The notes under the pieces were generated by a model, which did no database searches, had not been told where the DNA came from, and saw only the letters and a program-made list of their open reading frames with translations. 64,000 nt of DNA from Erysipelotrichaceae bacterium (GTDB lineage Bacteria; Bacillota_I; Bacilli_A; Erysipelotrichales; Erysipelotrichaceae). A program made the position numbers and the translations under genes. Position 1 is the stretch's first letter; every line of letters starts with the position of its first letter. The stretch lies in the NCBI GenBank assembly GCA_017473265.1, contig JAFULQ010000002.1, positions 1 through 64,000 of the forward strand. The letters are read 5' to 3'. This document shows positions 5,554 to 18,346 of the stretch, piece by piece.

Positions 5554-7796
<2,243 letters not shown>

Positions 7797-10675: not shown

Positions 10676-11359
10676 TTAAGCGGCCTTATTACCAGCCAAA
10701 ATAGTTGTTAATGAAATAAAGATAAACATTTGAATTAAACCTGCAAATACATCAAAATACGCATGTAATATTGGTGCAATTGCAATACCAATAATATTAA
10801 ATTCACCTAAGAAAGGTAACAATATTGAAGTTAACCACCCTGTAAATGTATAAACCAGAGTCATTAAAATACCACCTACTAAAATATTACCAAATAAACG
10901 TAGGGACATAGAAAGTAATGGAGCGATTTCACCAAATACATTCACCGGTAACATTACAAAGAATGGTTCTAACAATCCTTTTAAATATCCCTTCAATGTA
11001 TTGGCATGAATATTTACTCCCATGATAATACACCAAGAAATAAATGCTAAAGTCAATGTAACAGAATAGTTTGCTGTTGGAGCAGGAAGTCCAAACAAAC
11101 CACTCAAATTCGCAACACTCATATACAACATTAGCGAACCAATATATGGTGCAAAATGTTTTTTAAATTGAGCACCCATATTTTGTGATGTAAAATCATC
11201 CATCCATGTTACTACAATAATTCCCAAATTGGCTAAACCAGCAGGCTTTTCAGCAGGATCCAATTTTTTAATTTGGTTTCCCATACAAATCATGAGTACA
11301 CACAACAAAACTGCAATAATTAATATTGTATATACTTCTGGTTGAACCTTAATTACCAC
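10676..11359 (-). CDS. atpB: F1Fo ATP synthase a subunit
   Basis: 227 aa, about five to six membrane helices. The essential Arg is at 154 in SMSLRLFGN. It forms the ion half-channels against the c ring. Four bases separate it from the upstream atpI-like gene. Confidence 0.95.
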   Translation of the reverse strand: MVIKVQPEVYTILIIAVLLCVLMICMGNQIKKLDPAEKPAGLANLGIIVVTWMDDFTSQNMGAQFKKHFAPYIGSLMLYMSVANLSGLFGLPAPTANYSVTLTLAFISWCIIMGVNIHANTLKGYLKGLLEPFFVMLPVNVFGEIAPLLSMSLRLFGNILVGGILMTLVYTFTGWLTSILLPFLGEFNIIGIAIAPILHAYFDVFAGLIQMFIFISLTTILAGNKAA

Positions 11360-11903: not shown

Positions 11904-12523
11904 TACTTAGTTCCGAAAATACGGTCTCCAGCGTCACCTAAACCTGGAACAATATAACCATTTTCATTTAATCTTTCATCTTGAGATGCTAAATAAATAT
12001 CAACATCTGGATGCTTCTTTTCAATTAAAGCAATACCTTCAGGAACACCAACTAAGCAGATTAACTTAATTTGTTTAGCACCTTTTGCTTTTACTAATGT
12101 TAAAGCCGCATCAGCACTACCACCAGTAGCTAACATTGGATCCACAACCATAACTACTGCATCTTGTAAATTCTTTGGATATTTACCAAAATATTCATGT
12201 GGTAATAATGTTTCTTCATCACGATATAATCCAACATGACCAATTTTAGCTGTTGGAATTAATTCTAGAATACCATTTACCATACCTAAACCAGCACGTA
12301 AAATTGGTACTAAAACTATCTCTTTAGAAATTTGTTGAGTCACTGTTTTACAAATAGGTGTTTCTACTTCAACATCTTTTGTAGGTAAGTCTCTAGTTAC
12401 CTCATACGCCATCAAACCAGCGATTTCATCTAAGTTTTCTCTGAAATCTTTAGTTGTTGTTTTGGCATCACGCATCAATGATAACTTGTGTGTGATTAAT
12501 GGATGATTTAATACATGTAACAT
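11903..12523 (-). CDS. upp: Uracil phosphoribosyltransferase
   Basis: 206 aa. Makes UMP from uracil and PRPP in pyrimidine salvage. The PRPP-binding loop is [16 protein letters not shown] (about 125-140), and the uracil-binding [10 protein letters not shown] is at the C-terminus. Located between glyA and the atp genes, a common arrangement in Firmicutes; it is 12 bases after glyA. Confidence 0.97.
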
Positions 12524-12535
12524 TTCCTGTTCCTC

Positions 12536-13747
12536 CTAAAATTTGCTCGTTAATTCACGAACTTCTTTTCTTACTCTATTTATTACATCCTCATCATCAG
12601 GATGATGTAATACTTCTGAAATCCACAATGCAATTTGTTTAAACTCTTCCTCTTTATAGCCTTTTGTAGTCATAGCAGGAGAACCTAAACGAATACCACT
12701 TGTATAAAATGGTTTCTCTTTATCAAATGGAATACTATTTTTATTACAAGTAATTCCTACTAAATCTAATAAGTGCTCTGCTTTTTTACCAGTTAATCCA
12801 CAACTTGCCATAGTATCTACTAAAACCATGTGATTATCTGTTCCACCACTTACTAGTCTAAAACCTTCTTCTTTTAATGTAATTTCCAATTGTTTAGCAT
12901 TTTTAATAATTTGATGTGCATACTCTTTAAATTCCGGTTGCATCACTTCATTAAAACAAACAGCCTTACCAGCAATTACATGCATAAGTGGTCCACCTTG
13001 AATACCAGGGAACACTTTCTTATCTAACACTTCCGCAAATTCTTTTTTACATAAAATGACACCGCCACGAGGACCTCTTAATGTTTTATGTGTGGTACTT
13101 GTCACAAAGTCCGCATATGGAACTGGATTCATATGATATCCCGCCGCTACTAAACCAGCAATATGTGCCATATCTACCATTAAATATGCACCAACTTCAT
13201 CACAAATTTCTCTAAACTTATCAAACTTAATTTCACGTGCGTATGCACTAGCACCTGCCACAATTAATTTAGGTTGTAAATAATGTGCTAATCTTCTTAC
13301 TTCTTCATAATCAATCATTTCAGTCTCAGGATCTACACCATATCCAAAAAACTCATAAGTTTGACCACTAAAACTCATCTTATGACCATGTGTTAAATGA
13401 CCACCACAATCTAAACTCATACCTAATACACGATCATGTGGTTTTAAGATTGCTTGATATACACCCATATTCGCTTGTGAACCAGAATGTGGTTGCACAT
13501 TCGCATGTTCTGCACCAAAGATTTCGCATAAACGACGTTTCGCAATATCTTCAACTACATCAACATTAACACATCCACCATAGTAACGTTTACCAGGATA
13601 TCCTTCTGCATATTTATTCGTTAAGATACTACCTACAGCTTCCATAACATCATCAGAAACAAAGTTCTCAGATGCAATTAATTCAATATTATACTTTTGA
13701 CGCTCCGCTTCCGCTTCAATCGCCTTCAACACTTCTAAATCTTTCAT
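12536..13747 (-). CDS. glyA: Serine hydroxymethyltransferase
   Basis: 403 aa. PLP enzyme interconverting serine and glycine with tetrahydrofolate, the main source of one-carbon units. The PLP lysine is K221 in [14 protein letters not shown]. Start ATG 13747 follows GAGGAG by 5 bases and overlaps the tsaC/sua5 stop (ATGA); a GTG two codons upstream is less likely. Works with folD further right in the window. Confidence 0.97.
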
Positions 13748-14349
13748 AAGCACTCCTCGATTCTTTCTCTAGAAATTACACCTTCACGCAAAATTTTAAT
13801 TTCATCTGTAGTTAAATCTACAATCGTACTCGCAACACTTCCACCGCTTTGCCCATCAACTACACAAGCAATACGGCCATCTAATTGTGCTAACACTTCT
13901 TCTGTATTTGAAGTATTTGCGCCACCAGATAAATTTGCACTAGTAACTAATAATGGTTTACCTATTTTTGAAATTAAGGATAAAACAAAAGCATCATCCG
14001 GCATACGAATAGCAATCGTATTCTTATCATTCGTAACAAAACCAGGAACACTTTCCTTTTTATTTACAACGATTGTTAATGCTCCCGGCATTAATGTCTT
14101 CATTAGTTTTTCATATTTATTATCAACATTTGCGACAAGATAGATATCTTCTAAACTAGAAACCATCATTGGAAAAGGTTTCCCCTCATCTCTACCTTTC
14201 GCAATCTTCATTTTATTAATTGCATCGTAATTATCATAACAAACAGCAACACCAAAAACAGTGTCAGTCGCAAAAGCTACAACTTCACCCTGATTTAATA
14301 AAGCAATTACTTCATTCATTTGTTCTTTTTGAAGCAACTTCGTATGCAT
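13744..14349 (-). CDS. L-threonylcarbamoyladenylate synthase (TsaC/Sua5/YrdC type)
   Basis: 201 aa, a YrdC domain only: K-x-R/K region [13 protein letters not shown], then ADTVFG-like TDTVFGVAV near residue 29 and SANLSG near 138. Makes threonylcarbamoyl-AMP for t6A37 of ANN-decoding tRNAs. It lacks the long Sua5 C-terminal domain, so it is closer to TsaC. First gene of the glyA-upp-atp transcription unit; its stop overlaps the glyA start. Confidence 0.9.
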
Positions 14350-14372
14350 AATACGACACCTCCATTTTTAAC

Positions 14373-14401
14373 ATTTTAACACAAATTGTTTTGTATCTAA
14401 A
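14373..14401 (-). promoter_or_regulatory. Promoter of the tsaC-glyA-upp-atp operon
   Basis: On the minus strand TTTAGA (14396-14401), a 17-bp spacer and TAAAAT (14373-14378) with an extended TGT element. Confidence 0.6.
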
Positions 14402-14425
14402 GTAAAAACCGTGTAAATACCATAA

Positions 14426-14467
14426 AGAAAAAGAATTGTAACTATATTGAATCTACAATTCTTTTAA
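14426..14467. terminator. Terminator after the broken AlbA_2 gene
   Basis: AAGAATTGTA (14431-14440) pairs with TACAATTCTT (14454-14463) around a 13-nt loop. T-runs flank it on both strands. It lies just after the ancestral stop of the pseudogene at 14469, supporting that stop as the original gene end. Confidence 0.75.
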
Positions 14468-14468
14468 T

Positions 14469-15953
14469 TCAAGTTTTCTTATATCGTTTACTTTTATTTA
14501 TTCCTTCAGTAATTAATTGTTTACTATCCACCAAATTATTTAACAATACTTTTAACCTACTTATTTTCACATCAACAAAGTCTAATATTTCACTACTTTT
14601 ATACCATACATCCTTTTCCATTGAAGACAGTATTTGCTCATAGTGTTGCTTAGTTTTTAACGTTTTCTATATTTCATTATTATTTATCGCCATTTTTTTG
14701 TCGCCGTTTTTTATCGCCACTTTTTTCTTAAAACTCAACCTTAATACCGTTCTTTCATATGGTTCAATCCATTCTTCAATAATTGGTTCTACCCATCCTT
14801 CTTGATTCCACACCGAAAACAATTGCGGCACACCACTACCAGCTCGTTCTCCAATTCCAATTAAATTAAACATTTTCATCAATGCTTTATTTCTAGAATC
14901 AGATATACCACCATATTTCATACGATATTTACCCACTCTAATATTTCCAGGATTTTCTAATATTAAAGAATCTTCTTCTTGTCTTATAACAATTCCCAAA
15001 GGAATAAAAAAATCACTATTTACAATACAATTAACTAAAGCCTCTCTTATAGCTTTATGTACTGGTGTGTCATCCACTCGAGTGTCTTCTACTAATTTGA
15101 ATGGAATTTTCACATTACGAATCATTTTATGATACACACGAAAATAAAAATCAAATAAATTTCCCGACCATTCACCCGAAGTTGAATGCAATCGATCCGT
15201 CCATCTAATGACTGGATCTAACATTTCTCGATAGTCTAGAAAATATTCTGGATAATACCGCGTAATTTTATATTCATTCCCAAACATCATTAAACCCGCA
15301 ACCGTTGGATGTAATTGTCCATCTTTACCTTTTTGTGCCCCACCTATCATTTCTAAATAATGTTCATTATCCAAATGACTCCATGTATGATCCGGTCTAA
15401 ATAAACGATGTCTATTTCGATACGCATTTAAAGAATCTACATTAAATACACTCATATCCATTTCTTCAATTACAACCATATCCATTGTTTCATCAATTTA
15501 ATCTCTTAACATCGATTTCACTTGTAATCGACTACAATGATAATCACCCGTATGTGCTCTTTTATATGTACCTTTAAACATATCATTATTAATATAGACT
15601 GGCCTATCTTCTCTTTTGGCCATCGGAACATGGATTGCAATTACAATATCTTCATCAACTTCATATACTTCTATATCTTTTTCAGTTAGCAAATTTATAC
15701 TTACTTTGTTTTTGTTGTGGATTTGACTCCAAAAATCATCTAGTAATTTTTCTTTACCCTTTAAACCTGTAGTCTTCCAATGATTATCATCTATTTCTTT
15801 CACTCCTAAAATAATCACACCACCATATGTATTAGCCATACTTGAATAGGTTTCCCAAAGAGAAACAGGTAAACCACCATTGGCTTTTTTTACTTCTCTT
15901 CGATTATCTTCTTTGTATGAATCAAACATTGATATATCAAATAAAGCATCCAT
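14469..15953 (-). pseudogene. AlbA_2/Schlafen-type putative DNA-binding protein, interrupted by two in-frame stops
   Basis: One continuous reading frame of about 494 codons is interrupted by TAA at 15498-15500 and TAG at 14667-14669. The first part (about 150 residues) is an AlbA_2 domain (KEDNRREVKKA, ANTYGGVIILGV). The middle is the associated ATPase-like region (REALVNCIVNSDFF, IGIGERAGSGVPQLF). After the second stop the same frame continues for ~65 residues with a winged-helix-like tail ending at TGA 14469-14471. No frameshift is needed, so this is a recent nonsense-mutated gene, or one that is recoded. The start at 15953 is chosen because AGAGGA lies 10 bases upstream. Family members have been linked to transcription control or stress/phage responses; the function is not established. 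Confidence 0.8.
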
Positions 15954-15981
15954 CAATCTCATTCCTCTCATTTACAACATA

Positions 15982-16008
15982 ATTGTATCATGCTGAAAAA
16001 TGAGTAAA
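15982..16008 (-). promoter_or_regulatory. Possible promoter of the AlbA_2 pseudogene
   Basis: Minus-strand TTTACT, a short 15-bp spacer, and TACAAT with an extended TGA element. Confidence 0.35.
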
Positions 16009-16017
16009 GCATAACCA

Positions 16018-16380
16018 CTACTCAAACAAACTCATGATAATAGATTCACCTCTAGGTTTCACTACACAACTCTCCTGTACTAATTCTCCATGAATATATG
16101 TACCCATACCATCACCGACTACAACTGTTACTACATAATCTTTATAAGTTACTTCACTATTCTCGATAATAAAATAATCTTTTTCCAATAAATCACCTAC
16201 ATAGATGTTATCTACTCTATCTACCAAGGCATCAAACTGCTTAAATAACTCCTTCTTTACCTCAAACACTCGTGTAACATTAGAGTCATCGTATATTTCG
16301 TATTGAATTACATACGATTTTGCCCATAAAACATTAGATAATACTACAAACCATAAAGCTATAATAAGTACATACTTCAT
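16018..16380 (-). CDS. Hypothetical exported or membrane-anchored protein
   Basis: 120 aa. An N-terminal hydrophobic segment (residues 3-20, ending near AKS) looks like a signal peptide or anchor, with no lipobox cysteine. The rest is a small acidic extracytoplasmic domain. I recognise no family. The ATG at 16380 directly follows the U-run of the preceding terminator, and its only ribosome-binding sequence (AAAGGA) lies in that terminator's 3' arm. Expression therefore seems to depend on escape from the hairpin. A second upstream ATG (16392) has no spacing to a binding site. Confidence 0.65.
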   Translation of the reverse strand: MKYVLIIALWFVVLSNVLWAKSYVIQYEIYDDSNVTRVFEVKKELFKQFDALVDRVDNIYVGDLLEKDYFIIENSEVTYKDYVVTVVVGDGMGTYIHGELVQESCVVKPRGESIIMSLFE

Positions 16381-16413
16381 AAAAAAATCCATCCTTTCTA
16401 CTGAAAAGATGGA
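16380..16413 (-). terminator. Terminator/attenuator after prmC, containing the next gene's binding site
   Basis: On the minus strand an 11-bp stem (16403-16413 with 16388-16398, one wobble) with loop AGTA is followed by seven or more U residues. It ends the prfA-prmC unit and sequesters the AAAGGA of the next gene. Confidence 0.8.
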
Positions 16414-16427
16414 CTAATTTCTAAATT

Positions 16428-17279
16428 TTATACATTGTGATAGATAAATAACATACGATCCTTACCGTTGATATCTTTTAATACTTCTACTTTATCACCA
16501 ACAAACGCTTCCTTCGCTAAAGCTTCCAAAGCCTCTTTTTGGTCATAACCAATTTCAAATGCTAAGATACAACGATCTTTCATCACTAAATGAGCTCTTT
16601 CAAAAATGCGACGATAACAATACAAACCATCAACGCCACCAAATAAAGCAACATTTGGTTCAAAGTCTTTTACACTAACTTCCAATACTTGACTATCTGG
16701 AATATATGGTGGATTACTTACTAAGAAATCCAATTTTACTCCACGTTCAATTAATGGTTCTAATAAATCACCTTGGAAGAATTCTACATTCGCTTCTAAG
16801 TTTGCATTATTCTTTCTAGCAACACCCAATGCTTCTTCACTAATATCACTAGCAACCATAGATACTCTAGGTTCTTCTAATGCCAAACTAATCGCAATAG
16901 CGCCACTTCCTGTACCAACATCAGCCATAGATACTGTTCCTTCTGGGAAATATTCATCAATATCTGCCAACACATTCGCAACCAATTCCTCTGTTTCATA
17001 TCTAGGAATCAATACATTTTCATCTACAATAAATTGACGACCATAAAACCATTGATATCCTAAGATATATTGTAAAGGTTCTTGTTGTTTTAAACGAGCA
17101 AATGCTTCCATGTATTTAGCTAATAAATCACTAGGCATTTCTTCTTCATAACACATATACAAATCAGCCGCAGATTGATTCGCTAATTCAAGCATCAATA
17201 ATTGAGCACTTTGTTCATAAACACCAACTTCTTTTAATTCTTGTTGAGAGTTTCTTAATACTTCTTTATATGAAGGCAC
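16428..17279 (-). CDS. prmC: Peptide chain release factor N5-glutamine methyltransferase
   Basis: 283 aa. SAM-binding motif ADVGTGSGAIAI at 119-130 and the catalytic NPPY at 189-192. Methylates the Gln of the GGQ loop in RF1/RF2. GTG start overlapping the prfA stop (TAGTG), so it is translationally coupled with its substrate. Confidence 0.95.
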   Translation of the reverse strand: MPSYKEVLRNSQQELKEVGVYEQSAQLLMLELANQSAADLYMCYEEEMPSDLLAKYMEAFARLKQQEPLQYILGYQWFYGRQFIVDENVLIPRYETEELVANVLADIDEYFPEGTVSMADVGTGSGAIAISLALEEPRVSMVASDISEEALGVARKNNANLEANVEFFQGDLLEPLIERGVKLDFLVSNPPYIPDSQVLEVSVKDFEPNVALFGGVDGLYCYRRIFERAHLVMKDRCILAFEIGYDQKEALEALAKEAFVGDKVEVLKDINGKDRMLFIYHNV

Positions 17280-18346
17280 TATTGTTCACCTGCAATCTTC
17301 GCTTTTTGATCCGCATCTAATAAAGCAGCGATAACATCATCCAATTTACCTTCCATAATACGGTCTAATTGTTGGATAGTAAATCCAATACGATGGTCTG
17401 TTACACGGTTTTGAGGATAGTTGTATGTACGAATCTTTTCAGAACGGTCCCCAGTACCAATTTTACTACGACGAATTTCACCTTTTTCTTCATCAATACG
17501 ACGTTGATATTCATCATATACACGCGCCTTAATTAAACGCATAGCTGTTTCTCTATTTTCAATTTGAGAACGACCATCTTGACAGTTTACAGTAATACCT
17601 GTTGGTGTATGTGTAATACGAACTGCTGAGTCTGTTTTATTGATATGTTGTCCCCCAGCACCACTAGCACGGTGTGTTTCAATAACTAAATCATTCATGT
17701 TGATTTCAATTTCAACATCTTCAACATCTGGCAATACTAATACAGTAGCTGTAGATGTGTGAATACGACCTTGAGATTCTGTCTTTGGAACACGTTGTAC
17801 ACGGTGAGCACCTGATTCAAATTTGAAACGGCCATGTGCACCATCTCCTTTAATAATGAAACAGATTTGGGCGAATCCACCAGCTTCAGATTCAACAGCT
17901 TCAACTAATTCCACTTTGAAACCTTGACTTTCCGCATAACGTGTATACATACGATATAAGTCACCCGCAAAGATATTACCTTCATCTCCACCAGCAGCTC
18001 CACGAATTTCGAAAATTGCATCACAATCATCGTTAGGATCCTTTGGAATCAATAATACTTCTAAACGGTCCATTAATTCTTGACGACGTGGTTCTAATTC
18101 TTCTAATTCCATCTTCGCCATATCCATCATTTCAGGATCTTCTAATAACATATTCGCTTCTTCTAATTGTTGTAAAACACTCTTTAATTCTTGGAAAGCT
18201 TCAACTGTTGGTTGAATTTTTGCATGTTCCTTCCCAATTTTTGCATAGCGTTTAGGATCAGACATTAATTCAGTATCCATTAATAAACTATTAAGTTCAT
18301 TATAACGTTCTTCCATACCTTCCAAACGCATCATCATTTTATCCAT
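17279..18346 (-). CDS. prfA: Peptide chain release factor 1
   Basis: 355 aa. GGQ at 231-233, whose Gln is the PrmC target. The stop-codon recognition tripeptide P-x-T is PKT at 187-189, identifying RF1 rather than RF2 (SPF). Recognises UAA and UAG on the ribosome. Good ribosome-binding site (AGGAGG) at 18354-18359. Confidence 0.97.

What the first reader, a model, noticed from the sequence alone, without database searches (positions are those of the whole stretch)
14469..15953. AlbA_2/Schlafen-type gene split by two in-frame stops without any frameshift
TAA at 15498 and TAG at 14667 interrupt a single frame that stays coding-like on both sides, down to a TGA at 14469 followed by a terminator. 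Two clean nonsense changes suggest recent inactivation, phase-type selection, or readthrough. It is one of few decayed genes in an otherwise dense window.
Basis: seen in the sequence. Interest (0 to 1): 0.5.

Follow-up and report, generated by a model that had tools for sequence, protein, structure and literature searches.

The report
Recently broken Schlafen-type defence gene
A bacterium carries a recently disabled copy of a gene that relatives keep whole and probably use against viruses; the broken copy is ordinary, but the gene family shows an odd swappable tail.

Summary
On the minus strand one frame runs 15953 to 14469, cut by TAA (15498-15500) and TAG (14667-14669). The pieces are an SLFN_AlbA_2 domain, a HATPase_c_4 part and a C-terminal winged helix. 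In relatives this is one gene: 85 of 93 distinct complete homologous ORFs run unbroken. Residues conserved in relatives are still in place (0 of 48, 4 of 105 and 0 of 4 strongly conserved columns changed in the three parts), so the breaks look young. The genome has no second copy, no suppressor tRNA among 37 tRNA matches, and ordinary use of TAA and TAG. A sister genome about 96% identical lacks the gene here. Best reading: a patchily distributed Schlafen-type gene, probably antiphage, recently inactivated. Sequencing or mixed-strain error cannot be excluded without reads. Readthrough is not supported. Slippage made neither stop, but stop 2 lies just behind a tandem array. That array is a family trait (86 of 94 genes) and travels with the adjacent winged helix: some genes with nearly identical bodies carry a different array and winged helix. 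This side observation is more interesting than the pseudogene.

The parts
15501..15953 (-). Part 1: SLFN_AlbA_2 domain (Pfam match 15534-15911); start ATG 15953 with AGAGG 10 nt upstream
   Evidence: fold of the equivalent domain of relative L120 resembles SAMD9 and Schlafen nuclease domains
15498..15500 (-). Stop 1 (TAA), just after the AlbA_2 domain; 91 of 93 relatives have a residue at this column, 2 a gap
14670..15497 (-). Part 2: conserved middle plus HATPase_c_4 (about 14775-14990); an in-frame ATG at 15485 has no strong ribosome-binding site
14679..14726 (-). Degenerate tandem array, 13-14 nt units, about 3 copies, coding the lysine-rich linker
14667..14669 (-). Stop 2 (TAG), just behind the array and before the winged helix; 88 of 93 relatives have a residue here, 5 a gap
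14472..14666 (-). Part 3: C-terminal winged helix (65 aa), then TGA 14469-14471
   Evidence: fold of relative L120 residues 433-495
14429..14465 (-). AT-rich hairpin between the gene and tsaC, possible weak terminator
   Evidence: not listed
14438..16017 (.). Segment absent from sister genome G003, which has 53 bp here between flanks about 96% identical

Best explanation
This is a recently inactivated, patchily distributed bacterial Schlafen-type gene. The intact form has an N-terminal AlbA_2 (Schlafen RNase-like) domain, a minimal histidine-kinase-type ATPase part and a C-terminal winged helix. In relatives it probably acts in antiphage defence: sensing through the rear parts would switch on RNA cleavage by the front domain (inferred from published relatives, not shown here). 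In this genome two substitutions created in-frame stops. Translation would end after the AlbA_2 domain, so the full protein is not made. Shown: the stops, homology of all three parts to one gene, retained conservation, no second copy, absence in the sister genome. Inferred: loss of function, young age, defence role.
For: Single ORF in 85 of 93 distinct complete relatives; all 8 short ones are also frameshifted or stopped, so loss recurs in the family. Strongly conserved columns changed: 0/48, 4/105, 0/4 for parts 1-3, inside the range of 47 intact representatives. Under a simple neutral model 4 or fewer changes of 157 has P 0.026 at 3% and 0.00016 at 5% divergence, against 14% at fourfold sites between the two sister genomes (122/866), which suggests the breaks are younger than that split. 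One PF04326 gene in the genome. Sister G003 lacks it at this place. Patchy spread: AlbA_2 part matched in 47 of 195 family genomes. Defence context: relative L069 sits between a PglX-like methylase, PglZ and BrxL; plasmid relative H1 lies between hsdS and hsdR; PMC12839542 passages describe Schlafen RNase + minimal histidine kinase + wHTH as widespread with BREX.
Against: No reads and no second strain of the species were available. At the looser 80% threshold part 2 is a little more deviant than most (16/139; 8 of 47 representatives as high). No expression data. In this genome nothing else points to defence: no PglZ and housekeeping neighbours. Most neighbours of relatives that were looked at are housekeeping too.
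Confidence: 0.8

Rival explanations
1. Assembly or base-calling error, or a mixed-strain consensus: the gene is intact in most cells.
For: Draft genome of 29 contigs; conservation is nearly undamaged.
Against: Two independent substitutions both creating stops in one accessory gene, without any indel, is an unlikely error pattern; neighbouring genes are open.
Confidence: 0.12
2. The split gene still works as separate proteins: a free AlbA_2 domain and a reinitiated HATPase part.
For: Stop 1 falls right at the domain end, part 1 keeps the two glutamates conserved in 88 of 93 relatives, and an in-frame ATG lies a few codons behind the stop.
Against: 85 of 93 relatives are unbroken; that ATG is Met in 50 of 93 relatives anyway and lacks a strong ribosome-binding site; stop 2 additionally removes the winged helix.
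Confidence: 0.05
3. Stop-codon readthrough or recoding joins the parts.
For: All parts remain conserved.
Against: Normal use of TAA/TAG in the window, RF1 present, no suppressor anticodon in 37 tRNA matches; the genome is 95% complete, so a missing tRNA is possible.
Confidence: 0.01
4. A phase-variable locus caught in an off state.
For: Non-triplet array before stop 2; 4 of 8 broken relatives are frameshifted in the linker.
Against: Both stops are substitutions in the reading frame; changing the array length by one unit would put part 3 out of frame.
Confidence: 0.02

Closest known systems
Schlafen RNase + minimal histidine kinase + wHTH proteins linked to BREX (PMC12839542, passages read)
   Same: Same domain order; a close relative (L069) lies inside a BREX operon
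   Different: Window copy is broken by two stops and its genome has no PglZ
DIP2311 of Corynebacterium diphtheriae, PDB 3lmm
   Same: Whole-length match to the model of relative L120, Foldseek E about 1e-15; Z 14.5 over 365 residues but rmsd 14.9, so the domain arrangement differs
   Different: 16-18% identity; function of 3lmm not tested here
SAMD9 tRNase and Schlafen N-terminal domains (9o0d, 7cux, 7fex, 9uie, 5yd0)
   Same: AlbA_2 domain fold of relative L120, Z 8.5-9.9
   Different: Only the N-terminal domain; eukaryotic; cleavage by the bacterial protein not tested

Membership tests
AlbA_2-HATPase_c_4-wHTH (bacterial Schlafen) gene | SLFN_AlbA_2 domain (PF04326) | tested here: met
   E 2.3e-12, over cut-off
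AlbA_2-HATPase_c_4-wHTH (bacterial Schlafen) gene | HATPase_c_4 (PF13749) | tested here: met
   E 2.1e-7, over cut-off
AlbA_2-HATPase_c_4-wHTH (bacterial Schlafen) gene | C-terminal winged helix | tested here: met
   Part 3 homologous to C-termini of relatives; relative's fold, residues 433-495, Z 11.0, rmsd 1.4 over 62 residues to 1qbj. Part 3 itself has no Pfam match over cut-off
AlbA_2-HATPase_c_4-wHTH (bacterial Schlafen) gene | One uninterrupted reading frame | tested here: not met
   Two stops: member by descent, not an intact gene
AlbA_2-HATPase_c_4-wHTH (bacterial Schlafen) gene | RNase active-site carboxylates | tested here: inconclusive
   Two Glu five residues apart conserved in 88 of 93 relatives and kept in the window; their catalytic role is by recall of SLFN13
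BREX-linked Schlafen module | BREX genes nearby | tested here: not met
   No PglZ in the genome; the L069 PglZ has a relative in only 1 of 80 related loci, L069 itself
Recoded or readthrough gene | Suppressor tRNA or reassigned stop | tested here: not met
Phase-variable (contingency) gene | Slippage tract whose length sets the frame | tested here: inconclusive
   Array exists but does not explain either stop; no strains available

The most novel reading that the evidence does not exclude
In this Schlafen-type family the linker array and the winged helix behind it form one exchangeable 3' cassette on a conserved effector body. The array may be a DNA-level site read by the protein's own winged helix, so that each swap brings a matched recogniser and site, giving a defence gene with a replaceable specificity part. 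The window copy would be a dead allele with stop 2 at the cassette border. The cassette exchange is well supported by sequence; self-recognition is inference.
Probability: 0.22. Interest if true: 0.65.

Novelty: new member of a known kind. Interest (0 to 1): 0.3.

Why it matters
The broken gene itself is an ordinary example of loss of an accessory, probably defensive gene. What may matter is the family pattern met on the way: near-identical genes differing only in a roughly 240 bp array-plus-winged-helix segment would make it directly testable whether bacterial Schlafen-type proteins change their trigger or target by swapping this part.

Tried and rejected
A G003 deletion scar derived from the gene's 3' end: an 11-nt match exists next to the orf124 stop, but shuffles reach the local score 619 of 5000 and the global score 402 of 5000 times (an earlier, badly bounded test gave 253 of 2000). 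So deletion in G003 versus insertion here is undecided.

Promoter autoregulation by array units: own array 9-mers occur upstream of 6 of 84 genes against 5.25 expected by swapping upstreams: no support. Own 9-mers in the rest of the gene: 27 of 84 observed, 15.8 expected, not pursued.

Flanking direct repeats as a sign of mobility: 13 of 93 testable relatives against 1 of 128 control segments (L005 and L127 are the same gene, the L040 and L061 repeats are 18 bp, and the L076 repeat looks like a tRNA gene by eye). In the L036 genome the repeat occurs only at the two flanks. The window gene has none, so this was not used for the verdict.

Other blanks: no relative in viral contigs; no NCBIfam model; no PDB relative by sequence; part 1 has no PADLOC match, part 2 and intact relatives only weak matches to SIR2/pAgo and one PDC model. 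Literature on arrays or cassette exchange in this family: nothing found in searches (listings and starts of abstracts seen); the preprint cited for bacterial Schlafens is not held, so it was not read.

In one search the rows are dominated by residues 429-495; absence of other folds there is not evidence.

Full report
Observation. Window 14469-15953, minus strand, is a single frame of 495 codons including three stops: TAA 15498-15500, TAG 14667-14669 and the final TGA. With the window's base composition two or fewer stops in 494 codons has probability about 5e-15. Part 1 is SLFN_AlbA_2, part 2 carries HATPase_c_4, part 3 has no Pfam match over cut-off but matches the C-terminal ends of relatives. 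Flanks are tsaC-like (13744-14349) on one side, a 124-aa ORF (16018-16392), prmC and prfA (RF1) on the other.

Relatives. A genome-contig scan kept the best 80 of 152 confirmed loci; 30 of 60 relative genomes match part 2 and 47 of 195 family genomes match part 1. Of 142 loci given to tblastn (six loci of the own genome or of the empty site left out), 124 matched. From these, 100 ORFs scored above 150 bits with part 2; 3 incomplete and 4 identical ones were dropped, leaving 93. Of the 93, 85 are 470 aa or longer and run through as one ORF; the other 8 are shorter and each shows frameshifts or stops in the remaining gene. So the intact form is one gene and loss is recurrent. At the stop columns 91 and 88 of 93 relatives have a residue, the rest a gap.

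Age of the breaks. At columns at least 90% conserved in 47 representatives under 85% identical, the window departs at 0 of 48 (part 1), 4 of 105 (part 2) and 0 of 4 (part 3); 11 of 47 representatives are as deviant in part 2. At 80% conservation the figures are 7 of 71, 16 of 139 and 0 of 6, with 14, 8 and 47 of 47 representatives as deviant. A simple neutral model gives P(4 or fewer of 157) 0.75 at 1%, 0.026 at 3% and 0.00016 at 5% divergence. Sister genome G003 differs at 122 of 866 fourfold sites, so the breaks appear younger than that split. The model assumes equal rates and no earlier departures, so this is a rough bound.

Locus history. G003 aligns to window 12247-14437 and 16018-17319 at 96.3 and 96.6%, with 53 bp where the window has 1580. 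G002 also has no match to the gene and a short interval at the same place. G001, same genus, has copies at other places. Whether G003 deleted the gene or never had it could not be decided.

Readthrough and phase switching. Of 55 window ORFs of 150 aa or more, 34 end in TAA, 17 in TAG, 4 in TGA. All 37 tRNA matches in the 95% complete genome were covered by ARAGORN on 33 loci, with no anticodon for a stop codon. Neither stop lies in a short-unit repeat. The array 14679-14726 begins about 10 bases before stop 2 on the coding strand side, but the stop is in the frame of part 3, so slippage did not create it.

Likely function. The fold of intact relative L120 (mean pLDDT 70, pTM 0.44) matches 3lmm along its whole length, SAMD9 and Schlafen domains at the N-terminus, an anti-sigma-factor kinase-type fold (1tid, Z 8.5) at 252-405 and Z-alpha-type winged helices at 433-495; histidine kinases appear in the Foldseek list with weaker scores. 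PMC12839542 (passages read) describes Schlafen RNase fused to minimal histidine kinase and wHTH near BREX in at least 1017 taxa. Here relative L069 lies in such an operon; its PglZ has no relative in the other 79 of 80 loci. Plasmid relative H1 lies between hsdS and hsdR. Most other neighbours examined were housekeeping genes, and one (L051) is an AAA_13/PDC-S06-like gene. The defence role is therefore plausible but not shown.

Side finding. In 86 of 94 genes (93 relatives plus the window) Tandem Repeats Finder reports an array of score 50 or more in the linker before the winged helix, against 1 of 94 genes with such an array elsewhere; 11 of 208 unrelated ORFs of 300 aa or more in the same loci have one. 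Among 87 genes with any linker row, the best period is 27 in 52, 13 in 20, 14 in 4, 26 in 3, 39 in 1, and other values (11, 12, 15, 21) in 7. Units are a short core and a run of A; the core differs between genes and is alike within a gene. More distant relatives also have linker arrays, often of 12 nt: 8 of 17 examined; 8 of the 25 loci had no usable match and were left out.

Cassette exchange. Among 80 intact genes with arrays, 76 pairs are at least 93% identical before the linker; in 25 of them the winged helix is 56% identical or less (pairs are not independent). L040 and L061 are 92-100% identical per 60-bp block up to 5780, 55-75% across 5781-6020 and 100% from 6021 to 6200. L043/L073 and L102/L103 break at the same place. 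Over 3160 pairs, array similarity follows winged-helix identity with body identity held constant (partial rank correlation 0.54, 0 of 500 Mantel permutations as high) and not body identity with winged helix held constant (-0.10). No pair has a winged helix clearly more alike than its body, so transfer between distant bodies is not shown. Linkage within an exchanged segment is enough to explain the pattern; self-recognition of the array is not shown, and own array words are not enriched upstream.

Verdict. Ordinary, recently broken accessory gene, with a family-level pattern worth a separate look. I found no paper on the arrays or the exchange in the searches named under Tried and rejected.

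Noticed in passing
window 14679-14726; linker of 86 of 94 genes: Family-wide tandem arrays, mostly 13/14/27 nt, in the linker before the winged helix.
   Followed up: partly
L040 5781-6020 vs L061; L043/L073; L102/L103: Array plus winged helix replaced as a unit in otherwise near-identical genes.
   Followed up: partly
L036 3705-3807 and 5334-5436; L047, L059, L063, L042, L035: Genes flanked by 65-103 bp direct repeats that contain a hairpin in several; only the two flank copies in the L036 genome.
   Followed up: partly
window 10676-11359 (atpB): atpB differs from sister G003 far more than its neighbours: 33 of 68 fourfold sites, 56 of 221 residues; perhaps replaced by recombination.
   Followed up: no
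L069 839-10614: Relative embedded between PglX-like methylase, PglZ and BrxL.
   Followed up: partly
L007, after the ORF end: 4.8 perfect copies of a 20-nt unit with a palindromic core two bases behind the ORF.
   Followed up: no
L067 1848-5370: Two tandem copies of the gene, the second frameshifted.
   Followed up: no
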